64,000 nt of DNA. It comes from a gamma proteobacterium symbiont of Ctena orbiculata (GTDB taxonomy: Bacteria; Pseudomonadota; Gammaproteobacteria; Chromatiales; Chromatiaceae). Both the position numbers and the translations under genes were made by a program. Position 1 is the stretch's first letter; each line of letters starts with the position of its first letter. Location of the stretch: NCBI GenBank assembly GCA_003058495.1, contig QBVC01000034.1, positions 1-64,000 of the forward strand. The letters run 5' to 3'. Below the pieces are notes generated by a model that was not told the origin of the DNA, did not search any database, and saw only the letters and a program-made list of their open reading frames with translations. Positions 1 through 12,684 of this stretch are shown here, one piece after another.

Positions 1-67
1 ATTGATCGAGGTAGTTGATAGCAACCATGCTGTTTTGGTTGTAGTCGTAAGGAATGAATTTAGGCAT
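1..67 (-). CDS. N-terminus of a possible IS1182-like transposase (partial, runs off window)
   Basis: Reverse complement of 1-67 reads ATG CCT AAA TTC ATT CCT TAC ... = MPKFIPYDYNQNSMVAINYLDQ, resembling the N-terminus of IS1182-type transposases; truncated by window edge. Confidence 0.5.
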   Translation of the reverse strand, partial: MPKFIPYDYNQNSMVAINYLDQ

Positions 68-134
68 TAAATAACTCCCTTTCCTTTGTCTCTATTCTAT
101 CATTCCTTAGGTGAAAATAGGGGTTTTTCTACAG

Positions 135-201
135 CCTCAACGTTGCCTTCAGCGGGACTGGCGCGTTAGCGACTGTGTCCGCTGTAAGGCCTGGTTAAGT
201 G
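135..201 (-). other. attC site (cassette 5 / cassette 6 junction)
   Basis: cctcAACG...GTTAAGtg core sites with internal imperfect palindrome; GTTAAGTG (194-201) is the exact complement of CACTTAAC (617-624) at the other end of cassette 5. Confidence 0.8.
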
Positions 202-210
202 ATATTATTT

Positions 211-381
211 TCATATAAATATAACTACCGCTATTAATACTAAAGGAAAGATCCACCAATAGCGTTTTGCATATCCTGTTTGTTGGCTTTTTTGTTCTTC
301 TTCCCTTCCCAAGTAATACGACTTTATAATTAGCAGTACAAGCAATATCCCAACAATTAAAGACAAGATTAATGTTTCCAT
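211..381 (-). CDS. small membrane protein, second ORF of cassette 5
   Basis: METLILSLIVGILLVLLIIKSYYLG...YWWIFPLVLIAVVIFI, two hydrophobic segments; ATG overlaps the upstream ORF stop (TAATG). Confidence 0.6.
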   Translation of the reverse strand: METLILSLIVGILLVLLIIKSYYLGREEEQKSQQTGYAKRYWWIFPLVLIAVVIFI

Positions 382-611
382 TATCTGGACTTCCACCATT
401 GCTTAAGAAAGGAAACAAGACCAAGTCCAACAATAAAAGCTAATAAAGACAATATTTGCCATATTTGGAAAGAATTAGCCCCTGACTTTCCCAGTGTAGT
501 AACGACTTCTGGTGATCCGCTCAACATCTCAGTAAGACCAAAAATGCTGCAATAGAAGCAAGCTATAGCTCCAAGTGCTATGAATACTGAAAGTACTATC
601 TTCTGCACCAT
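381..611 (-). CDS. small membrane protein, first ORF of cassette 5
   Basis: MVQKIVLSVFIALGAIACFYCSIFGLTEML...; start chosen just inside the cassette boundary (attC 617-677). Confidence 0.6.
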   Translation of the reverse strand: MVQKIVLSVFIALGAIACFYCSIFGLTEMLSGSPEVVTTLGKSGANSFQIWQILSLLAFIVGLGLVSFLKQWWKSR

Positions 612-616
612 TTTCA

Positions 617-677
617 CACTTAACGTTCTAATCAGTCGCGCCGCTTTTTGGCGTCGACTGGATTTGGTTGTTAGGCT
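617..677 (-). other. attC site (cassette 4 / cassette 5 junction)
   Basis: CACTTAACGttc...gcgccgctttttggcgtc...GTTAGGCT; overlaps the 3' end of the cassette 4 ORF. Confidence 0.85.
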
Positions 678-1194
678 TTTCAGCAGTGTTAAACTTGCTG
701 GCAACTTCTTCGTACAGTTGTGATTGACCGACAGATACTCCCAGAACGAATGCTGCTAATAGGAAGCCGACAGTCTTAGCCCATAATGAAAATGGTGCAT
801 GTGTATATAGCCAAGAAAGCGTAATCTTTTGAGGCCACTCAAGCTGTTTCTTTTCTTCTGATGTGCTTTTGGCGGCTTTTGGGTCACCATATTTGTCATA
901 CTTATTTACTATTGTTTCCAATTCAACAATTGTGTCTTGAAGGTCTCGATTAAAGGCGTCTATATGGTCTTTTTGTGATGGGTCATATGTATATGAACCT
1001 TGTTGATAAAATAGCCTGTTTTGTATTGAGCAATTAATCTCATAGCCATTATCTTCAATGCGTTGAATTAGATCTGTAAGGTTGTGCCGCCATTTTCTAA
1101 AAGCTGGATCTTCATCGACTTTTTTGAGATCAAAAAGATTATTTGCCTCCTGTAAATAATCTCTTACTTCTGCTGCAAAGTCTTCGTATTTCAT
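628..1194 (-). CDS. integron cassette 4 protein: soluble N-terminal region with C-terminal transmembrane segment
   Basis: 188 aa ORF fills the cassette; C-terminal tail NNQIQSTPKSGATD is encoded within the attC. Confidence 0.65.
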   Translation of the reverse strand: MKYEDFAAEVRDYLQEANNLFDLKKVDEDPAFRKWRHNLTDLIQRIEDNGYEINCSIQNRLFYQQGSYTYDPSQKDHIDAFNRDLQDTIVELETIVNKYDKYGDPKAAKSTSEEKKQLEWPQKITLSWLYTHAPFSLWAKTVGFLLAAFVLGVSVGQSQLYEEVASKFNTAEKPNNQIQSTPKSGATD

Positions 1195-1213
1195 ATGACA
1201 TTATTTCCTTACA

Positions 1214-1282
1214 AGCCTAACGTTGCCTTCAGCGGAGCAGGCGCGAATGCGACTGCGTCCGATGGAAGGCCTGGTTAGGGCT
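1214..1282 (-). other. attC site (cassette 3 / cassette 4 junction)
   Basis: AGCCTAACgttgccttcagcgg...ggcctgGTTAGGGC; sequence closely related to the attC at 135-201. Confidence 0.85.
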
Positions 1283-1287
1283 GCGAA

Positions 1288-1725
1288 TTAATTAAATGTT
1301 TGCCAACTTGTAACCTTACCATTTACCGTATAAACGTATTGATTCTTTCTGTATACATGCTGAATATGCACAATATTTCCTGTTACTGATTTATTTTCTT
1401 TCAATGGCTTACCCCAGCTTACATATAAAGCACACTGACTCATACCAGCAGCAACTTTATGCTCAGCTATTAATTCTTGGTCTTGTTTGGATAGTAACCC
1501 TCTTCTGTTTACTTCTTTAAACCAAAGAGATTGATTATGTTTTACTATTTCTTTGTCTTTTTCAGATAAATATTCATTTCTAATTCTGTTTCCACCAGCC
1601 GCTTTACAAGCATATTCATCGTTGAATCTTGCTCCCCAAGTTTCGGCATCTGCTTCAGTTAATCTAGGTATCTCAGCACACCCCGATATAAAAACAACAA
1701 GAAAAACAAAAAGTCTGTAGTTCAT
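1288..1725 (-). CDS. integron cassette 3: putative lipoprotein
   Basis: MNYRLFVFLVVFISGCAEIPR..., signal peptide with lipobox-like ISGC; ORF fills the cassette. Confidence 0.65.
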   Translation of the reverse strand: MNYRLFVFLVVFISGCAEIPRLTEADAETWGARFNDEYACKAAGGNRIRNEYLSEKDKEIVKHNQSLWFKEVNRRGLLSKQDQELIAEHKVAAGMSQCALYVSWGKPLKENKSVTGNIVHIQHVYRKNQYVYTVNGKVTSWQTFN

Positions 1726-1747
1726 TGCACCTTTCCTCTACTTTTTT

Positions 1748-1797
1748 GCCCTAACGCCGCATTCAGCGGCTTGTCCGCTGAAATGACTGGTTAGTTG
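1748..1797 (-). other. short attC site (cassette 2 / cassette 3 junction)
   Basis: GCCCTAACgccgcattcagcggcttgtccgctgaaatgactgGTTAGTTgc. Confidence 0.8.
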
Positions 1798-1800
1798 CGT

Positions 1801-2208
1801 TTACGTTAAACGAGGCCATTTTTTATTTATACCCAATGTTACAATCACAATAACCAGACATACCAAACCATATGGAACCATAAACTCTAAAACAGCACCT
1901 CCCAAATACTGCATAAATTCTGGATTGCTAGATTGAACAAAGACAACCCAGAAAGCACCTACAGATAATAGAATTGCTACAACTAATTTTAGATTTGCTT
2001 TCACGACATAACTTACTAAGCATGTAATAACTGCTGTAACTAACCCAGAGTAATAGTATTGATATTGCAATGTTTGGATGTAACTTTCATCTATTGCTAC
2101 TACAGCACCCATACTACTCAGTGGACCCGTACTGAAAGCGACAACAAGACCGATGAATGCTGAAATAATAACGGCCGTGTATTTGAGTATTGTCATTCTT
2201 GTATGCAA
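1801..2208 (-). CDS. integron cassette 2: multi-pass membrane protein
   Basis: 135 aa ORF with about four hydrophobic stretches between attC sites. Confidence 0.6.
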   Translation of the reverse strand: MHTRMTILKYTAVIISAFIGLVVAFSTGPLSSMGAVVAIDESYIQTLQYQYYYSGLVTAVITCLVSYVVKANLKLVVAILLSVGAFWVVFVQSSNPEFMQYLGGAVLEFMVPYGLVCLVIVIVTLGINKKWPRLT

Positions 2209-2294
2209 CTAACGTTTCAGTAACCGGCAGCCGCAGCGCAGCGTAGGCTGTCCGAGCGAACGACAGTGAGCGGGGTTTACTGGCTTGTTAGGCG
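2207..2294 (-). other. attC site (cassette 1 / cassette 2 junction)
   Basis: gcAACTAACGtttcagtaaccggcagccgcagcgcagc...tttactggcttGTTAGGCG. Confidence 0.85.
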
Positions 2295-2299
2295 ATCTG

Positions 2300-2704
2300 C
2301 TACCCAGCACTGCGATCACCACCATTCCTTGATCGACCAGAAACATTTAATTCGGCATGTGGTTTTTTGCGCGAATACTTGCCAGTGCACCTATAAGAAC
2401 TGAGATGCGCATTTTCTGGCTGGTTGCGGATATTGGACCAATATTCTTTTTGAACATTTTTATCAATTTTAACTATTCCTGGATATAAGGTGTCATTTCC
2501 ATCTTTTCGAGGCTTTGATATCCAGTATTCGATACCTGAATTAAGTTCGAAGTAATTCGATTTGTAGCCAACTCCCTTTAGTGACTGAAACTCCAAGCCT
2601 CGGTAATAAAGTGTTTTTCCGGTCTTTGATAATTGAACACGGCAAATCCTGCCATCACCAGTCAAGCCTGCCTTGTCTTCGATATACATGATTTCGGTTC
2701 TCAT
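2300..2704 (-). CDS. integron cassette 1: conserved cassette-associated hypothetical protein
   Basis: MYIEDKAGLTGDGRICRVQLSKTGKTLYYRGLEFQSLKGVGYKSNYFELNSGIEYWISKPRKDG..., resembles a small protein family common in integron cassettes. Confidence 0.7.
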   Translation of the reverse strand: MRTEIMYIEDKAGLTGDGRICRVQLSKTGKTLYYRGLEFQSLKGVGYKSNYFELNSGIEYWISKPRKDGNDTLYPGIVKIDKNVQKEYWSNIRNQPENAHLSSYRCTGKYSRKKPHAELNVSGRSRNGGDRSAG

Positions 2705-2710
2705 TATTTA

Positions 2711-2800
2711 CGCCTAACATTACATTAGACAGAATCTTTACTATTACCAATAGTACGGACGCGGCCTATTGTGCTATTGGAAGATTCGGCATAGCATAAT
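2711..2800. other. attI-like recombination region
   Basis: CGCCTAAC (2711-2718), exact complement of GTTAGGCG (2287-2294), at the attI/cassette 1 junction between intI and the first cassette; right edge approximate. Confidence 0.6.
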
Positions 2801-2857
2801 GACTGAAATTGACTGTTTTCGGGCAGGATGCCCAAGCTAGTAACAAGGAGAGTTTTT

Positions 2858-4261
2858 ATGAAAGATGCTTCTGCCATCGTCCATGACCCCACTGCCCGTT
2901 TTTTTGATAACTACCTGAAATGTCTCATTAGCGCTTCCATACCTGAGAAGCAACGCCGCTGGTATGTTAAACGCCTAGAGGATTTCATTAAGGCGCAAAA
3001 TGGCCACAAAATCAAGGCGCTTTCAGTCCTGAATATCCATAACTACTTGGAAATGATAGGCCGCCAAAAACAGCTCTCAGGCTGGCAATTCCACCAATGC
3101 ATCGATGCTATACGGATTCTCTACTGCGATCTGTTGCAGACACCACAGTGTCAGGAAGTCGATTGGCACTATTGGTTTGATTCCGCAAAACAGCTTGAGA
3201 TAGATCATCCAACGACCGCACGTCAGCTCACACCCGAGCAATTATCCTACATCAAAGAACGCAAGGGTGACGGCCCTCTCAATCAGGTGCGAAAGGACCA
3301 CCACTCATTACTGGTTCGTTTTACCCAAGAGATTCGACGGCGAGGCTATGCCTACCGTACAGAACAAATTTATGAACAATGGGTCGGACGTTTCATTCTG
3401 TTTTGCAAGAATCAACCTCCATCTGAAGTGGGGGCTCGCGAGGTAAAACGCTTCCTCGATCACTTGGCCATCCGGCGTCGGGTCAGTGCAAGCACGCAAA
3501 ATCAGGCGCTCAATGCCTTGGTTTTTCTTTATAAACAGGTACTTGAACGCGAACTGGGTGAGTTGGAAGCCTTTACGCGAGCCAAACGGCCGCAAAATCT
3601 GCCTGTCGTTCTCAGTCGTAGTGAAGCAACCGCCCTACTCAACCAACTGACGGGTATTCACAAATTGGTTGTCTCTCTACTCTATGGAACAGGTATGCGT
3701 CTGCTCGAGGGGCTAAGGCTCCGGGTGCAGGATCTCGATTTCGCCTACGGGCGCATCCATATCCATCAGGCCAAAGGCAAGAAGGATCGGTACGTTCCGC
3801 TGCCTAAGACATTGGTTGCCGAGCTGCAACATCAAATCCGTGAGGTCGAGCGGTTGCATACTGAAGATTTGGCTACTGGTCACGGAGAAGTCGTCTTGCC
3901 CGGTGCATTGGCCCGTAAATACCCAAATGCGGGCAGAGAGCTCAAGTGGCAGTTCCTCTTTCCTTCCGGTCGTCTCTCCGTCGATCCCTATGGCGGGGAA
4001 ATTCGCCGCCATCACTTGCATGAAACTGCGATCCAGAAGGCGGTGAAGCGGGCGGCGGCTGCCGCTCAGATCAATAAACGGGTGGGGTGTCATACCCTGC
4101 GGCATAGCTTTGCCACCCATCTGTTGGAGGCCAATTACGACATCCGTACCGTGCAGGCCTTGCTGGGCCATGCCAATGTGTCGACCACGATGATCTACAC
4201 GCATGTGCTCAATCAGCCCGGTGTCGGCGTTCTCAGTCCCCTGGATCAACCCGTTTCATAG
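2858..4261 (+). CDS. intI: integron integrase (IntI family tyrosine recombinase) with N-terminal extension
   Basis: LLYGTGMRLLEGLRLRVQDLDF, IntI-type insertion KYPNAGRELKWQFLFPS...RRHHLHETAIQKAVKRA, catalytic HTLRHSFATHLLE and LLGHANVSTTMIYTHV; RBS AAGGAGAG before ATG 2858. Confidence 0.92.
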   Translation: MKDASAIVHDPTARFFDNYLKCLISASIPEKQRRWYVKRLEDFIKAQNGHKIKALSVLNIHNYLEMIGRQKQLSGWQFHQCIDAIRILYCDLLQTPQCQEVDWHYWFDSAKQLEIDHPTTARQLTPEQLSYIKERKGDGPLNQVRKDHHSLLVRFTQEIRRRGYAYRTEQIYEQWVGRFILFCKNQPPSEVGAREVKRFLDHLAIRRRVSASTQNQALNALVFLYKQVLERELGELEAFTRAKRPQNLPVVLSRSEATALLNQLTGIHKLVVSLLYGTGMRLLEGLRLRVQDLDFAYGRIHIHQAKGKKDRYVPLPKTLVAELQHQIREVERLHTEDLATGHGEVVLPGALARKYPNAGRELKWQFLFPSGRLSVDPYGGEIRRHHLHETAIQKAVKRAAAAAQINKRVGCHTLRHSFATHLLEANYDIRTVQALLGHANVSTTMIYTHVLNQPGVGVLSPLDQPVS

Positions 4262-4272
4262 AAATTTAAACC

Positions 4273-4476
4273 ATGAAGCACCATGCGATGGAAACATCCC
4301 ACGTTTGCCTTATCCTATCGGGGAATATCGGTAACCCGGATGCCGCACAGCGCATGGATGCGGGCGAGGCCGAGCTGTCACGGCTGATCGAGGCGGCCGA
4401 TTCGGTGTGTGATCAACGTGGTCAAAAACTCGAGCTGGTGGTTTTTGATAAAGAAGTCGGGAATGGCAAGCCATAG
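4273..4476 (+). CDS. small hypothetical protein
   Basis: 67 aa ORF immediately downstream of intI; no family recognised. Confidence 0.3.
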   Translation: MKHHAMETSHVCLILSGNIGNPDAAQRMDAGEAELSRLIEAADSVCDQRGQKLELVVFDKEVGNGKP

Positions 4477-4483
4477 ATCTGAA

Positions 4484-4559
4484 TGGTGGCCAGGGACAGA
4501 ATCGAACTGCCGACACGGGGATTTTCAGTCCCCTGCTCTACCGACTGAGCTACCTGGCC
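4484..4559 (-). tRNA. tRNA-Phe (GAA)
   Basis: GGCCAGGTAGCTCAGTCGGTAGAGCAGGGGACTGAAAATCCCCGTGTCGGCAGTTCGATTCTGTCCCTGGCCACCA on minus strand. Confidence 0.97.
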
Positions 4560-4624
4560 TTTGAGAGGAGGGCGTATTAAACCGGGGTTACCAGATGGAG
4601 TCAAGTCTGCGCCCCCGTTGGAGC

Positions 4625-4891
4625 TTACTGGGGGCGGTAGTCGGGGGGCGGTTGCGCGCCCTCGCCGAAGAAGAACTGCTCCATCTGTTCCTCGAGAAAC
4701 TTGCGCGCCTGGGGGTCGACCGGGCTGAGACGGTGTTCGTTGATCAGCATGGTCTGAAAACGCAGCCACTCCTGCCAGGCCTCCTTGGAGACGTTGTCGA
4801 AGATGCGCCGTCCCAGTTCGCCGGGGTAGGTCGGGCGCTCCAGCCCTTCGGCCTCGCGATTCAGTTTGACGCATTGCACGGTACGGCTCAT
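4625..4891 (-). CDS. yggX: Fe(2+)-trafficking / oxidative damage protection protein YggX
   Basis: [57 protein letters not shown]. Confidence 0.95.
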
Positions 4892-6024
4892 GGGGCCACT
4901 CCTTCGGATTGCTGTTCGTTGTTGAGCTGTCGGATCTCGCTGAGGATGCGGCTCACCGGGGCGGCCAGTCCGAGATCATCGGGTCGTGACAGGTTATACC
5001 AGACCCTTGCGCCCCTATCCATGAGGCCATTTACAGGGTTTTTCATTGCCATCACCACCGGGGTGATGTCGAGGTGAAAATGGGAGAAGCTGTGGCGTCT
5101 TGGAAGCAGGCGGGCCCGCTCCTCCGCCTCGTAACCCAGCACTTCCCGGCACCAGCTCTCAAGAGACTGATCCTGTGGTGACTCGGGCAGGCTCCAGAGA
5201 CCGCCCCAGACACCGCTGGGGGGGCGCTGCTCGAGCAGGATGGCGTCGCTGCCGTCGCTGAGGATCACCATCCGGGTGGCGCGCACCGGCAGCGCCTTTT
5301 TCGGCTTGGGTGCGGGATAGCGTGAGGGATCGCCCTCGGCCAGGGCCTGGCAGCTTGCCGTTAACGGGCAGGCCTCGCAGGCCGGTCTCCCCCGCAGGCA
5401 GCGGGTGGCGCCCAGGTCCATCATCGCCTGGTTGTATTCCGCGGTGCGCGCATGGGGGGTCAGGGTTTCGCTCAGCCGCCACAGCCGTTGCTGCACCTCA
5501 GAGCGGCCGGGCCAGCCGGGAACGGCGAAGTGGCGCGCCAGGACCCGCTTTACATTGCCGTCGAGGATCGGGGCATATCCGCCGAAGGCGAGGGAGCGGA
5601 TCGCCCCCGCGGTGGAGCGGCCGATGCCGGGCAGGGTCTGCAGCGTCTCGATATCCGCCGGCACCCTACCCTGGTGCTGCGCCATGATCTCTCTCGCCGC
5701 CCGGTGGAGGTTCCTCGCCCGGGCGTAGTAGCCCAGCCCGGACCAGTGGTGCAGCACCCGGTCCCGTTCGGCCGCGGCCAGGGCGGCGACATCGGGGAAG
5801 GCCGCCATGAAGCGCCGGAAGTAGCCGATCACGGTGTTCACCCGGGTCTGCTGCAGCATGATTTCGGAGACCCAGACCCGGTAGGGATCGCGGGGACGCT
5901 GCCAGGGGAGATCCTTGCGGCCATGGTCATCGAACCAGGCCAGCACCCGCCGTGCGAACGCCTCGGCACACTCGGGAGGGACTGGGGATCCTGCCCGGTT
6001 CGTCGTCTTCGCCGCGGCCATCAA
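4888..6024 (-). CDS. mutY: A/G-specific adenine glycosylase
   Basis: [30 protein letters not shown], Hh[26 protein letters not shown] Fe-S cluster motif. Confidence 0.96.
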
Positions 6025-8156
6025 AAGAGATTTTTCAGCTTGTCCTTGAGCTTGTCCTTGACCTCCTCGGGCACCTTCTCCTCCAGCTTCTCGCCGATCT
6101 TCTCGTCCACCTTGTCGTCGAACTTCTTCTTCAGCTTCGCCTTCTGCTGCTCCTCCAGGATCTTCCCCAGCTCGATGGAGAAATCGGGGTTGTTCCAGTT
6201 GCCCTTGATCCTTACCGGAATCGGTACGCCGACCAGCTCCTCCAGCGCCTCCCCGCCCTGCCCCGCCGGGGTGTTGACGATCACCGGGCGAACGGAGTAT
6301 TTCAGGCGCTCCTCCAAGAGGTAGGCCTTGCCGCTCCCCTCCAGGCGAAGGTAGGGGGACTTGGCGAGCAGGCTCTGATTGTTCACCACCCCGTTGACGA
6401 TTGTGGCGCGGCCGTTGAGTTCCGAAAAGTCGGTCTGTTCCGGCTCGTTCAGCACCAGGGTGCCCTCGCCCTTCAGGCGGGCCTTGGTGTCCCGGATCAT
6501 CTTCGCCAGGTTGAACCCCTTCACCGCGCCATCGCGGAAATCGAAGGCGAGCTGGCCGTTGAGGCCGCGCTTCAGCTGTTTGACGGTATTGCCCCGGCTG
6601 CTCAGCTGCATATCGAGATCGCCGCTGCCGAGCAGGGTATCCTTGCCGGTCAGGTCCATCAGCAGGGGACCGGAGAGTATCCTCGACACCTTCTGGTTGA
6701 GCTTCACCGCCGGCCGCTCGCCGGTGACATCGAGCTGCACATCGCCCTTCATCAGGCCGTCGTAGAAGCGGCCGACCTCATGGTCGAGATTCAGCTTGCC
6801 GTCGCGGCCGCGCACCTTCAGCAGGATCGCCTCGGCACGTACGCCGTTGACGATAATGTTGTCGATCCGCAGGGTCCCGTCCACGCGCAGCTGGCGCAGC
6901 AGCTCGTTGGGAAACAGGGGCTCGTCCTCTCCGCCCCCCTTTGCCGGCCTCCTCGGCGCCTTTCCGGGTTCCGCCGCCGGCGGCAGGTAGCGATCCAGAT
7001 TGATGCTGTTGAGGTCGAGATTGAAGAGATAGGCGGGGGAGGCGAAATCCACCAGCTCGAACTCGCCCTTGAGCTTGGTCTGATCCAGCTCCAGCAACAG
7101 GTTTTTCATCACCAGCTGATCGCTGGAGGCGGTGAAATCCAAGGTCAGATAGAAGGATTGCAGCACCTCTTCGTCAGCCGTTTCCGGCAGCGGCAGGCCG
7201 AACTGCTTCATCCACTCACGCAGGTTGAATTCAGCCAGTTTCAAATCGCCCTTGAAGGAGGGATCGGTCTGTATATTCTCTCCCTGCACCTGGCCGCTGA
7301 GTTTGAGTTTGCCGGATGAGAGCACCAGATCGTGCAGATCCAGGGTGTTGCTCGACAGGTTGACCTGCAGATTGCCCTCCAGCAGCCCCTCAATCCCCTC
7401 TTCCGGCATGCCCTCGCCGGTGAGATTCACCGCCAGCTGCACATCCTGCATGCTGTACAGCTGCTTATCCGGGTTCACCAGCATCTGGGATGTCAGCTTG
7501 ACATTGCCCTTCATCATCGGTTTTCGGCTGGCCAGATCCATACCGAAACTCAACTCGACTTCGCGGCCGGGGGCCAACTCTCCGGTCTGCAGGTAGATGT
7601 TTTCCACCTGGAAGCGTTCTCCCGTGGATTGGTCATCCCACACCAGGTTGGCCTCCTTGATGTCCAAGCCGCCGATGGTAATGGCAGGCAGTGCCGCTCC
7701 GCCCTGGGTCTGGGGCTCTTGTGCTTCCGCGGTCTGATCCGCTTCGGCCTTCCCCAGCATGTCGTCCCAATTGGTGGTGCCGTTCTTCGATTTTGCGAGA
7801 TTGAGCTTCAGGCCTTCGATGCGCACGGTATCGACTTCCAACAGCTGTTTGAACAGCAGCGGCACCAGATTCACCCCCACCTCGGCATGCTTCACCGCGG
7901 CAAAATCACTGGCCTCGAAGCCCTCGGCATTGCTCAGGGTCAGGCCGTTGAGCTCCAACGCGAGCCTGGGAAAGACGGAGAGCCCGATATCGCCCTCGAT
8001 GGCGAGGTCTCGCCCGGTCGCCTTTTTCACCTCGGCCACGATCCGCTCTTTATGGTCGTTGGGGTCGACAAACAGGGGAATGAGGATGATCGCCGCAATC
8101 ACCAGCAGCAGGATCATTCCTATCAGCCACCCAAGCACTTTCAGTGTCTTGCCCAT
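6021..8156 (-). CDS. AsmA family protein
   Basis: N-terminal TM plus AsmA-type repeats; MGKTLKVLGWLIGMILLLVIAAIILIPLFVDPNDHK. Confidence 0.9.
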   Translation of the reverse strand: MGKTLKVLGWLIGMILLLVIAAIILIPLFVDPNDHKERIVAEVKKATGRDLAIEGDIGLSVFPRLALELNGLTLSNAEGFEASDFAAVKHAEVGVNLVPLLFKQLLEVDTVRIEGLKLNLAKSKNGTTNWDDMLGKAEADQTAEAQEPQTQGGAALPAITIGGLDIKEANLVWDDQSTGERFQVENIYLQTGELAPGREVELSFGMDLASRKPMMKGNVKLTSQMLVNPDKQLYSMQDVQLAVNLTGEGMPEEGIEGLLEGNLQVNLSSNTLDLHDLVLSSGKLKLSGQVQGENIQTDPSFKGDLKLAEFNLREWMKQFGLPLPETADEEVLQSFYLTLDFTASSDQLVMKNLLLELDQTKLKGEFELVDFASPAYLFNLDLNSINLDRYLPPAAEPGKAPRRPAKGGGEDEPLFPNELLRQLRVDGTLRIDNIIVNGVRAEAILLKVRGRDGKLNLDHEVGRFYDGLMKGDVQLDVTGERPAVKLNQKVSRILSGPLLMDLTGKDTLLGSGDLDMQLSSRGNTVKQLKRGLNGQLAFDFRDGAVKGFNLAKMIRDTKARLKGEGTLVLNEPEQTDFSELNGRATIVNGVVNNQSLLAKSPYLRLEGSGKAYLLEERLKYSVRPVIVNTPAGQGGEALEELVGVPIPVRIKGNWNNPDFSIELGKILEEQQKAKLKKKFDDKVDEKIGEKLEEKVPEEVKDKLKDKLKNLF

Positions 8157-9113: not shown

Positions 9114-9371
9114 GTGTTGAAGCAGTTGACAGTGCTCTCACTCCTGCTGCTCGGTGCTGTCGCCGAGACGATGGCGGAGAAGGGCGACTCGATCATGTTT
9201 GCGCCCAAGGAGCACCCTTTCACCCAAGCCCCGCAGGCAGAGGAGGAGCAGGCGGAGCGTTGCGCCCGACTGGCAACAGAGATCGAGGCGCTGAAGGGCA
9301 AGCCGCAGCGCCGGCATGCCGCCCTGGAACGCTATCGTTTAAGCTGCACCGACCAGGATCGATTGGAGTGA
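9114..9371 (+). CDS. small exported hypothetical protein
   Basis: signal-peptide-like N-terminus MLKQLTVLSLLLLGAVAETMA. Confidence 0.5.
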   Translation: MLKQLTVLSLLLLGAVAETMAEKGDSIMFAPKEHPFTQAPQAEEEQAERCARLATEIEALKGKPQRRHAALERYRLSCTDQDRLE

Positions 9372-9373
9372 AC

Positions 9374-9447
9374 TGGAGCGGGTAACGGGAGTCGAACCCG
9401 TCTCTCTGGCTTGGGAAGCCAGGGTAATACCGATATACGATACCCGC
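9374..9447 (-). tRNA. tRNA-Gly (CCC)
   Basis: GCGGGTATCGTATATCGGTATTACCCTGGCTTCCCAAGCCAGAGAGACGGGTTCGACTCCCGTTACCCGCTCCA; anticodon loop TTCCCAA. Confidence 0.95.
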
Positions 9448-9531
9448 CTGACCACAAGTCTACATCGCCATCAATATCCTGTCATGCCGGCCCGGCTGGC
9501 GATGACGGCCCCGTGGCAGGGACCGGCAAGG

Positions 9532-11349
9532 CTACACCAGACCATCGCCGTAGAGTGACTCGACCTGGCCGCCGCAATGCTGCAACACCTTTTGGCGCTT
9601 AATTTTCATGGTCGGCGTCATCAAGCCGTTGTCGATGGTCCAGGGCTCTAACAGCAGCGCCACCCGGCGGATCTTGGCATAGCCGGGAAAATCCCGTAAT
9701 GCCATGCGGATGCGCTTCAACACCACGTTGTGCAGACGTTCGTCCCCAAGGCTGGCTGGCAGCGACGGATCGAGTTCATACTCCTCGGCGAAGCCGTTCC
9801 ACAGGTCGGGATTGAGCACCACCAATGCCCCCAGGTAGGGTTTGCCCTCACCCACCACCATCACCTGCTCGATCAGGGGATCGAGGGCGATCGCCATCTC
9901 CATGTCCGAGGGCGGGATCTTCTCGCCGTTTGACAGCACCAGGATATCCTTGATGCGGCCGGTGATGTAGATATGGCCATCGCCGTCGATGCGCGCCTGG
10001 TCTCCGGTGTGGAGCCAGCCCTGGGGATCGATCATCTCGGCGGTCGCCGCATGGTTGTTCCAGTAGCCGAGCATCATCCCCGGCGTCTTCACCAGGAGTT
10101 CGCTGTCGTCACCGATCTTCACCGTGACGCCGCGCAAGGGCACGCCGACGCTCTCCGGCTTGATGTTGTGCATCGGATTGACGCTGATCACCGGACTGGT
10201 CTCGGTGAGGCCGTAGCCCTGCAGCATCGGCAGACCCAGTCCGAGAAAGACCCGGGCGATCTCCGGCGAGATCGCCGCCCCGCCGCTGACCGCGACCCGC
10301 AGGCGTCCGCCCAGCTTGTCGAGAATCTTCCCCGAGACCAGCTTGCGCAGCAGGGGGTGCAGCAGCAGGCCGGGAAACCAGGCCCGACGCCCCATGCGAT
10401 ATTCGAACTCCTTGAATCCGATCTTCAGCGCCATGTTGAAGAGCAGGCGCGCCAACGGCGTCTTGTTCTGCAGCTGGTCCTGCACCCGGGCATAGACCCG
10501 CTCGAAGATCCGCGGCACCGCAATGATCGCGGTGGGCCGGATATGCTGCAGATCCTCCGCCAACTGGGGAATGGAACGGGCGAAGGAGACGCTGGCGCCG
10601 GCCATCATCGGCAGATAGTAGCCTCCTGTCCGCTCCAGGGTGTGGGAGAGGGGCAGGAAGGAGAGAAAGCTGTCCTGCTGATAGCAGTCCACCACGGTCA
10701 GTGAACCGTGGGCGATGGCGAGCATGTTGTAGTGGCTCAGCATCACCCCTTTCGGGCGGCCGGTGGTGCCGGACGTATAGACAATGGAGGCCAGGTTCTC
10801 GGGATCGGCATACCGCCTTTTCAGCGCTTCACCCCGGGGAGGCAGCCAGTGCTTTGCCTCGCGCACCAGCTCGTCCTCCACCGACTGCGGCTGGCGATCG
10901 GTCTCCAGCACCACCACCCGCTGCAGCTGCGGCAGCTCCTCCACCGAATCGGCCATCCGGTTCCAGCGGCCGCTGTCCTGCACCAGCAGCAGTTTGACCG
11001 CCGCGTCCCGCAGGATGTAGGCGATGGCGTCCGCGCGGTCATCGGTATAGAGGGGAACAACCACCAATCCCAGGGAGAGGGCGGCCTGGTCGAACATCAC
11101 CCATTCGGGGCTGTTGCGCAGCAGTATGGCGACCCGGTCTCCCTCCTCCAGGTCCTCAGCCAAGAGCGCCTGGCGCCAGCGCGTCACCTGCCGCTCCATG
11201 TCGCCCCAGGTGAGCTCGTACCACTGCTTGTTGTACCGGTGGTAGTGTCGATAGGCCACCGTATCCGGGGTTCGGCGCGCACGCTGCAGAAACAGTCCAT
11301 CCAGGGTTCCGGCCTGTTCCGGGGATATCAGGTCTTCACTCCACTTCAC
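9532..11349 (-). CDS. AMP-dependent long-chain acyl-CoA synthetase
   Basis: IVYTSGTTGRPKGVMLSHYN, GYGLTETSPVISVNP. Confidence 0.93.
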   Translation of the reverse strand: MKWSEDLISPEQAGTLDGLFLQRARRTPDTVAYRHYHRYNKQWYELTWGDMERQVTRWRQALLAEDLEEGDRVAILLRNSPEWVMFDQAALSLGLVVVPLYTDDRADAIAYILRDAAVKLLLVQDSGRWNRMADSVEELPQLQRVVVLETDRQPQSVEDELVREAKHWLPPRGEALKRRYADPENLASIVYTSGTTGRPKGVMLSHYNMLAIAHGSLTVVDCYQQDSFLSFLPLSHTLERTGGYYLPMMAGASVSFARSIPQLAEDLQHIRPTAIIAVPRIFERVYARVQDQLQNKTPLARLLFNMALKIGFKEFEYRMGRRAWFPGLLLHPLLRKLVSGKILDKLGGRLRVAVSGGAAISPEIARVFLGLGLPMLQGYGLTETSPVISVNPMHNIKPESVGVPLRGVTVKIGDDSELLVKTPGMMLGYWNNHAATAEMIDPQGWLHTGDQARIDGDGHIYITGRIKDILVLSNGEKIPPSDMEMAIALDPLIEQVMVVGEGKPYLGALVVLNPDLWNGFAEEYELDPSLPASLGDERLHNVVLKRIRMALRDFPGYAKIRRVALLLEPWTIDNGLMTPTMKIKRQKVLQHCGGQVESLYGDGLV

Positions 11350-11632
11350 GTATCAACTCCAGTCATGGCGCAACCGCCCCAAGGGCGTTGCTCGGGCCTT
11401 TTATCATTATATTTTCGCTGTCCTGAAGCGACGGATAACCGCCTTGTTGCTGTTGCGGCATCGGCGAAATGATTGCCTTCGCCTCCGCTCCCTGGACGCC
11501 GCCGAGAACCGTAGCGGACGATCTCCATCCCCTTGGCGCAGTTGCGAGAGAGGCGTCGCTCTACTCACACGTACTTTGTTGTCTCAAGATGAGGTAAAAT
11601 TCCGTTTTGCCCCCACTAGAGATCGGATAGAT

Positions 11633-11833
11633 ATGCAGATTTACTTAAACGGCGAGGAAAAGCAAATTCCCGACGCATCGAACATGGCAAGGCTGATCGA
11701 ACTGCTCGATCTCGGCGGCCAACGTATTGCCGTTGAGGTCAACGAAGAGTTGGTGCCCCGCAGCACCTTCGATCAGCATCAGCTCCACGAGCAGGATCGT
11801 ATCGAGATCATCCAGGCCGTCGGGGGGGGTTGA
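11633..11833 (+). CDS. thiS: sulfur carrier protein ThiS
   Basis: 66 aa ubiquitin-like protein [15 protein letters not shown]... ending in GGG, directly upstream of thiG. Confidence 0.93.
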
Positions 11834-11889
11834 ACAAACCCCGCGCCATCCCTCTTCACCGAATCAACCTTCAACCCAACAAAATACCG

Positions 11890-12684
11890 ATGCCAAACGA
11901 TAACCAACATGACAGCTTCAGTGTCGCCGGACGCCGTTTCAACTCCCGCCTGCTGGTCGGTACCGGAAAGTACAAGGATATGCAGGAGACCCGCGATGCC
12001 ATCGACGCCAGCGGTGCCGAGATCGTCACCATCGCGGTGCGCCGCACCAATATGGGCCAGGAGAAGGATCAACCCAATATCCTCTCCGTCCTCCCCCCCG
12101 ACGAGTTCACCTATCTGCCCAACACCGCCGGCTGCTACGATGCCAAGACCGCGGTGCGCACCTGCCGTCTCGCCCGGGAACTGCTGGATGGGCACAACCT
12201 GGTCAAGCTGGAGGTGCTGGGCGACGAGAAGACCCTCTTCCCCGATGTGGTCCAGACCCTGTCGGCGGCGGAAGAGCTGATCAGGGACGGTTTCGATGTG
12301 ATGGTCTACACCAACGACGACCCGATCATGGCGAAGCGCCTCGAGGAGCTGGGTTGTGTCGCGGTGATGCCCCTGGCGGCGCCGATCGGCTCGGGCCTGG
12401 GAATCCGCAACCGGCTCAATATCCTCACCATCGTGGAGAACGCCAAGGTCCCTGTGCTGGTGGATGCCGGCGTGGGCACCGCCTCCGATGCCGCCGTGGC
12501 CATGGAGCTGGGCTGCGACGGGGTGCTGATGAACACCGCCATCGCCGCGGCGGAGAAACCGGTGCTGATGGCTTCGGCGATGAAAAAGGCGATTCAGGCG
12601 GGTCGCGAGGCCTACCTGGCCGGTAGGATGCCGGCGAAGCGATTCGCCTCCGCCTCGTCGCCCCTAGATGGACTCTTTTTCTGA
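11890..12684 (+). CDS. thiG: thiazole synthase
   Basis: [51 protein letters not shown]. Confidence 0.96.

What the first reader, a model, noticed from the sequence alone, without database searches (positions are those of the whole stretch)
135..2800. Mobile integron with five complete cassettes whose boundaries are exactly complementary
Each cassette's two ends carry matching core sites: cassette 1 CGCCTAAC/GTTAGGCG, cassette 2 GCAACTAAC/GTTAGTTGC, cassette 3 GCCCTAAC/GTTAGGGC, cassette 4 AGCCTAAC/GTTAGGCT, cassette 5 CACTTAAC/GTTAAGTG. This is the signature of IntI-mediated insertion of circular cassettes. All cassette ORFs run on the minus strand away from intI, as expected, and have a visibly lower GC content than the chromosome to the right.
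Basis: partly seen in the sequence, partly recalled or inferred. Interest (0 to 1): 0.75.

Follow-up and report, generated by a model that had tools for sequence, protein, structure and literature searches.

The report
Chromosomal integron invaded by attC-targeting insertion sequence
The window starts in an ordinary bacterial gene-capturing device (an integron) holding five complete gene cassettes, and it stops there because a jumping gene of the IS1182 family has landed exactly in a cassette recombination site, a habit that close relatives of this jumping gene show in many bacterial groups and that I found no report of.

Summary
Five cassettes (window 141-2717) have core sites identical over 8-9 nt at both ends. 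A covariance model trained without window sequence finds all five attC sites and nothing else below E 0.5 in 64 kb. IntI is real (TIGR02249, 459.6 bits) and carries a second core-binding domain at its N-terminus.

"Mobile integron" is wrong. intI and its flank (tRNA-Phe, yggX, mutY) are syntenic in related species, and homology stops exactly at the attI core, with different cassettes in each. This is a small sedentary chromosomal integron of Candidatus Thiodiazotropha. Cassette mobility is real: an 80%-identical copy of cassette 5 lies core-to-core in another species' array.

The sixth boundary (GTTGAGGC, 134-141) is not a cassette. It is the end of an IS1182-family element inserted in the attC core, where the contig breaks. 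Of 70 related insertions with a readable left end, 68 have GTT there; 62 of 65 readable pairs are GTT/GTT; 106 of 107 attC model hits lie on the transposase strand. Remote IS1182 members lack this. I found no published description (ISfinder and subscription journals not searched). The integron is ordinary; the IS1182-attC group is the noteworthy part.

The parts
2828..4261 (+). intI, integron integrase, 477 aa: second SAM-like core-binding domain (about 20-105), normal core-binding domain (160-245), catalytic domain (267-461)
   Evidence: TIGR02249 459.6 bits, cut-off 265; PF13495 and PF00589; solved IntI4 2a3v aligned to 166-473, E 7.8e-90; helix pattern 21-103 repeats 159-238 in the model
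2711..2790 (-). attI region; core GTTAGGCG at 2718-2711
   Evidence: Conserved in three related species up to GTTA, unrelated sequence beyond
2213..2717 (-). cassette 1 (505 bp), ORF 2300-2704, 134 aa, no family
2205..2294 (-). attC1
   Evidence: R1 19.8 bits E 0.0045; bottom-strand fold -31.3 kcal/mol
1755..2212 (-). cassette 2 (458 bp), ORF 1801-2208, 135 aa, four hydrophobic segments
1748..1798 (-). attC2, family shared with several species of the genus
   Evidence: R1 29.6 bits; 98-100% copies of about 43 bp elsewhere in the genus
1221..1754 (-). cassette 3 (534 bp), ORF 1288-1725, 145 aa, signal-like N-terminus ending GC (possible lipoprotein)
1214..1281 (-). attC3, of a family common in the genus
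   Evidence: R1 39.0 bits E 1.1e-8; 85-95% copies in many species of the genus
624..1220 (-). cassette 4 (597 bp), ORF 628-1194, 188 aa
617..677 (-). attC4
   Evidence: R1 30.9 bits
141..623 (-). cassette 5 (483 bp), two small hydrophobic ORFs (381-611, 76 aa; 211-399, 62 aa)
   Evidence: 80%-identical whole-cassette copy, core to core, in G011:C2
134..201 (-). attC5, interrupted after its core GTT by the IS
   Evidence: R1 24.3 bits E 2e-4; intact counterpart followed by GTTAGAG in G011
139..141 (-). GTT, left copy of the presumed 3-bp target duplication in the attC core
   Evidence: GTT on both sides in 62 of 65 readable related insertions
1..138 (-). left end of an IS1182-family element: inverted repeat GAGGCTGTAGAAAAACCCC and first codons of the transposase (66-1); cut by the contig end
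   Evidence: Same 141 bp start contig C2; full homologue in L077 is NF033551 IS1182, 296 bits
4484..4559 (-). tRNA-Phe(GAA), conserved chromosomal flank
   Evidence: flank synteny
4625..6024 (-). yggX-type gene (oxidative damage protection protein) and mutY, conserved chromosomal flank
   Evidence: NF003817 and TIGR01084 above cut-off; homology to G016 and G001

Best explanation
This is a small sedentary chromosomal integron. IntI recombines folded single-stranded attC hairpins of circular cassettes with the attI beside it, cutting at G|TT, so each captured cassette enters next to intI and carries its own core at both ends. The platform has stayed at one chromosomal locus through divergence of several species while the cassettes turned over. 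After the fifth cassette, an IS1182-family element has transposed into the core GTT of attC5, making a 3-bp GTT duplication, with its transposase pointing the same way as the cassettes. The same element sits in both intact integrons of this genome and ends both contigs. Its transposase clade targets integron attC sites generally, probably by recognising the hairpin plus the GTT core. Shown: IntI identity, five attCs, attI break, inter-species cassette copy, IS at attC cores in many bacterial groups. Inferred: IntI activity, DDE transposition as the insertion route, hairpin recognition.
For: IntI. attC by an independent model. Synteny and attI break. Cassette 5 copied core to core in another species. 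Distal side: contig C20 ends with the IS right end, then two cassettes with attC, then mazG, and the closed genome G016 has intI ortholog, array and mazG in one locus, so the whole array is most simply C22 five cassettes, IS, C20 two cassettes. IS-attC association: GTT/GTT 62 of 65; 106 of 107 attC hits on the transposase strand; hits ending within 2 nt of the IS junction in 31 loci, 23 of them with E below 0.1; remote IS1182 controls with no attC and other ends.
Against: No activity assay. The IS copy of the window is cut by the contig end, so whether its transposase is intact is unknown. Two related insertions are not at GTT (L138 ATT/ATT with no attC; L185 AAC/AAC, which reads as the opposite orientation). 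The attC model misses nearly half of the IS junctions, although most of those flanks look like attC by eye. That C22 rather than C2 joins C20 rests on synteny with a relative, not on reads.
Confidence: 0.9

Rival explanations
1. It is a mobile integron on a transposon, plasmid or genomic island, recently acquired as a whole.
For: Cassettes are AT-rich against the chromosome, and intI genes are found near contig ends.
Against: intI and flanking housekeeping genes are syntenic in G006 (99% intI identity), G016 (92%) and G001 (85%); tRNA-Phe, yggX and mutY on one side, mazG on the other. No transposition module is adjacent. Contig ends are explained by the IS repeat.
Confidence: 0.04
2. The IS is inserted by IntI, not by its transposase: a circular IS with GTT between its ends recombines at the attC core as if it were a cassette.
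For: Junctions fall at the IntI cut G|TT and orientation is constant. A circle joined by GTT would give GTT on both sides.
Against: The IS has no attC of its own. AAC/AAC and ATT/ATT insertions exist. Ends are flush inverted repeats typical of a DDE element with target duplication.
Confidence: 0.15
3. The IS clade only likes the trinucleotide GTT in AT-rich DNA and lands in integrons because they tolerate insertions.
For: GTT is nearly constant and cassette arrays are non-essential.
Against: Insertions fall at the single R' core GTT of attC and not at the many other GTTs of cassettes, with constant orientation; the bases after the right-hand GTT follow the attC core consensus (A at position 4 in 54 of 64). 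attC model hits end exactly at the junction.
Confidence: 0.07

Closest known systems
Sedentary chromosomal integrons (Vibrio, Xanthomonas; e.g. PMC12444791)
   Same: Conserved chromosomal locus, variable array of ORFs mostly of unknown function, attC families shared within the genus
   Different: Small array (five cassettes plus probably two), attCs of several types, IntI with an extra N-terminal core-binding domain
IntI4 of Vibrio cholerae (PDB 2a3v)
   Same: Catalytic and core-binding domains, including the IntI-specific insertion
   Different: About 160 extra N-terminal residues forming a second SAM-like domain; a match to this extension occurs in 20 of 148 other sampled gammaproteobacterial genomes
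IS1111-attC group (Tetu and Holmes 2008; Post and Hall 2009, cited in PMC11187229)
   Same: Insertion sequences that insert site-specifically in attC sites
   Different: IS1111 has a DEDD transposase guided by a seekRNA (PMC11187229); here a DDE transposase of IS1182 with terminal inverted repeats and GTT on both sides
IS1272, IS1182 family (PMC5678879)
   Same: Same transposase family; reported to target inverted-repeat (stem-loop) DNA
   Different: IS1272 replaces the stem-loop and makes no target duplication; here the attC is kept and GTT appears duplicated
Group IIC-attC introns (background in PMC7923331)
   Same: Another mobile element associated with attC
   Different: Retroelement; one intron reverse transcriptase ORF lies next to the IS in a relative (L077)

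Membership tests
Integron | IntI tyrosine recombinase with IntI-specific region | tested here: met
   TIGR02249 459.6 bits over cut-off 265; patch GHGEVVLPGALARKYPNA at 351 and catalytic motifs present
Integron | attI next to intI | tested here: met
   Homology to three related species ends at core GTTA
Integron | Cassettes with attC sites, inverted core pairs and foldable bottom strand | tested here: met
Integron | IntI-catalysed attI x attC recombination | not testable with these tools
   Natural proxy only: cassette 5 copy in another array
Mobile integron (classes 1-5 type) | Association with a transposon, plasmid or ICE | tested here: not met
   Syntenic housekeeping flanks in relatives
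Sedentary chromosomal integron | Same chromosomal locus in related species with variable array | tested here: met
   G006, G016, G001
Sedentary chromosomal integron | Large array with homogeneous attCs | tested here: inconclusive
   Array is short and cut by the assembly; attC3 and attC5 are alike, the others differ
IS1182 family | DDE transposase matching the family model | tested here: met
   Complete relatives: NF033551 296 and 295 bits, cut-off 270. The window copy shows only its first codons
IS1182 family | Terminal inverted repeats | tested here: met
   GAGG(C/A)TGTAGAAAAACC-type sequence at both ends of relatives
IS1111-attC group | IS1111/IS110-type DEDD transposase | tested here: not met
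   Transposase is DDE_Tnp_1_6 / IS1182

The most novel reading that the evidence does not exclude
A large clade of IS1182-family insertion sequences, spread over Gammaproteobacteria, deltaproteobacterial lineages and MAGs of several other phyla, is specialised for integron attC core sites. It would be a second, DDE-type IS lineage that evolved attC targeting independently of IS1111, perhaps from a family habit of recognising stem-loops, and it shapes chromosomal integrons by interrupting attC sites.
Probability: 0.7. Interest if true: 0.6.

Novelty: new variant of a known kind. Interest (0 to 1): 0.5.

Why it matters
The integron itself is one more chromosomal integron, in the symbiont genus Candidatus Thiodiazotropha. 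The IS is more interesting: attC sites are recognised by structure, and a DDE transposase that homes to them would be a new case of target choice by folded DNA, directly testable in E. coli. Such elements would interrupt the attC they hit, provide homology between arrays, and break assemblies at arrays, so integron surveys may be missing the cassettes behind them. The tandem core-binding IntI, found in roughly one in seven sampled gammaproteobacterial genomes, is a second open question.

Tried and rejected
Rfam search: only two tRNAs at the gathering threshold, no attC match. A simple core-plus-stem score separated IS junctions from background poorly (71% against 22% at score 9), so I dropped it for covariance models. 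L087 was first taken as a control IS but has a GTT left end and groups with the attC-targeting set in the tree; the other 12 controls group together. PDLC05005 hit of cassette 4 (E 0.0024) and other weak family hits of cassette ORFs are not credible. Promoter scan near attI no better than shuffles. No LexA-type CTG-N10-CAG box at 2601-2900. Literature: no paper found that describes IS1182 elements in attC; Tetu and Holmes 2008 itself is not held.

Full report
Observation. The five cassettes are as described. Cassette starts and R'' sites are identical over 8-9 nt and then diverge. All ORFs are on the minus strand away from intI. GC is 38-44% in cassettes and 60% in the chromosome. Bottom strands fold into attC-type hairpins. 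A covariance model (R1) trained on class 1 plasmid attCs and attCs of other species, with no window sequence, finds the five sites at E 1e-8 to 0.0045 and nothing else below E 0.5 in 64 kb.

Integrase. The 477-aa protein is an IntI; the closest solved structure is IntI4, 2a3v. Residues 1-160 are extra. They match the SAM-like core-binding domain weakly (PF13495, E 3.6e-4, and 3.1e-5 for the second IntI of the genome). In the predicted structure helices 21-35, 40-56, 67-78, 85-103 repeat the pattern 159-171, 176-192, 203-216, 221-238, with good local confidence (overall pTM only 0.47, so domain placement is not reliable). A match to this extension occurs in 20 of 148 other gammaproteobacterial genomes sampled.

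Locus. The genus is Candidatus Thiodiazotropha: genus member G005 contig C2 and record JAHXIQ010000002.1 have the same length, 847,738, and carry the same IS. intI plus the right flank is homologous in G006, G016 and G001, and homology ends at window 2714-2715 in G016 and G006, the attI core; beyond it each species has different cassettes. So the platform is resident and the cassettes vary. In G016, intI carries an in-frame TAA at codon 57.

Cassette transfer. Cassette 5 has an 80%-identical copy in G011, in an array of several attCs about 7 kb from a different intI (46% identical). The alignment runs from one core to the other and both outsides are unrelated. attC3-type sites are 85-95% identical in many species of the genus.

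The sixth boundary. The first 141 bp of C22 and of C2, which starts with the second intact integron of this genome, are identical. On the minus strand they begin at the attC core and read GTT|GAGGCTGTAGAAAAACCCC, then the start of a protein MPKFIPYDYNQNSMV. Relatives in G004 and G016 show an IS1182-family transposase with inverted repeats. On the far side of the IS, GTT plus the next cassette follows. In the own genome the right end of the IS ends contig C20, followed by two cassettes with attCs and mazG. G016 has intI ortholog, array and mazG together, so the C22 array most simply continues into C20. This inference is from synteny.

A clade of attC-targeting IS1182 elements. I searched 85,488 species genomes for relatives of the transposase without regard to context. 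Of 70 loci whose left IS end could be read, 68 have GTT there; 62 of 65 with both ends readable have GTT on both sides; exceptions are ATT/ATT in L138, AAC/AAC in L185 and an unreliable right end in L167. With model R2, trained on attCs not at IS junctions, 60 loci give 107 attC hits, 106 on the transposase strand; 31 loci have a hit ending within 2 nt of the junction, 23 of them with E below 0.1 (junctions counted by hand from the table). Hosts include Rheinheimera, Arsukibacterium, Alishewanella, Zhongshania, Billgrantia, Hydrogenophaga, Desulfospira, and MAGs named Nitrospirota and Lentisphaerae. Ten plasmid IS1182 elements and two more relatives at 25-29% identity have no attC nearby; the ten plasmid elements, whose ends were searched for, show no GTT pair and mostly a TGTGTGAAAAC-type repeat. 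They group apart in the tree. Copies are not all independent: Desulfospira and Zhongshania contribute several each.

Mechanism. For the integron, standard IntI chemistry is inferred from anatomy plus natural transfer. For the IS, DDE transposition with a 3-bp GTT duplication is the simplest reading. Constant orientation means that the target is asymmetric, as attC is. IS1272 of the same family is reported to target stem-loops (PMC5678879), so hairpin recognition is plausible but not shown. IntI-mediated insertion of an IS circle is the main rival.

Known or new. Chromosomal integrons are known. attC-targeting IS are known for IS1111, the only such IS group named in the literature I could read (PMC11187229, PMC11089894, PMC12444791). 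I found no paper on IS1182 elements in attC, but ISfinder and most subscription journals were not available.

Noticed in passing
L005 (G000:C2:1-8000), intI 2034-3416 +: Second intact integron of the genome: IntI 460 aa with the same N-terminal extension, two cassettes (333 aa and 185 aa ORFs, no Pfam family), then the same IS in the attC core.
   Followed up: partly
L017 (G000:C9) 9140-12000: Third, broken integron: intI truncated after about 299 residues by a deletion and frame change, followed by cassettes with TPR-like, glyoxalase-like and SnoaL-like ORFs and two attC hits.
   Followed up: partly
L086/L238 (G000:C43 about 77500-79270): A different IS1182 copy (44% identical transposase, broken by a stop) also sits in an attC, with GTT on both sides, and no intI was found on this contig.
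   Followed up: partly
L077 (G004:C1) 4195-6017: A group II intron-type reverse transcriptase ORF (417 aa) directly beside the IS1182 element inside an integron array, so two attC-associated mobile elements may be stacked.
   Followed up: no
L053 (G016:C1) 6380-7810: The ortholog of the window's intI in a closed genome has a premature TAA at codon 57; G007 has a frame-broken one. IntI decay seems recurrent in the genus.
   Followed up: partly
class-wide: IntI proteins with a tandem core-binding domain: the extension matches in 20 of 148 other sampled gammaproteobacterial genomes; function of the extra domain unknown and no paper found.
   Followed up: partly
L138 (KSB1 MAG) 899-2721: Close relative of the attC-targeting transposase (68% identity) flanked by ATT/ATT with no attC hit: what it targets where there is no integron is open.
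   Followed up: no
L237 (G000:C20) 7305-7904: Cassette behind the IS encodes a flavodoxin-like protein (PF12724, E 3e-22), one of the few array ORFs with a recognisable family.
   Followed up: no
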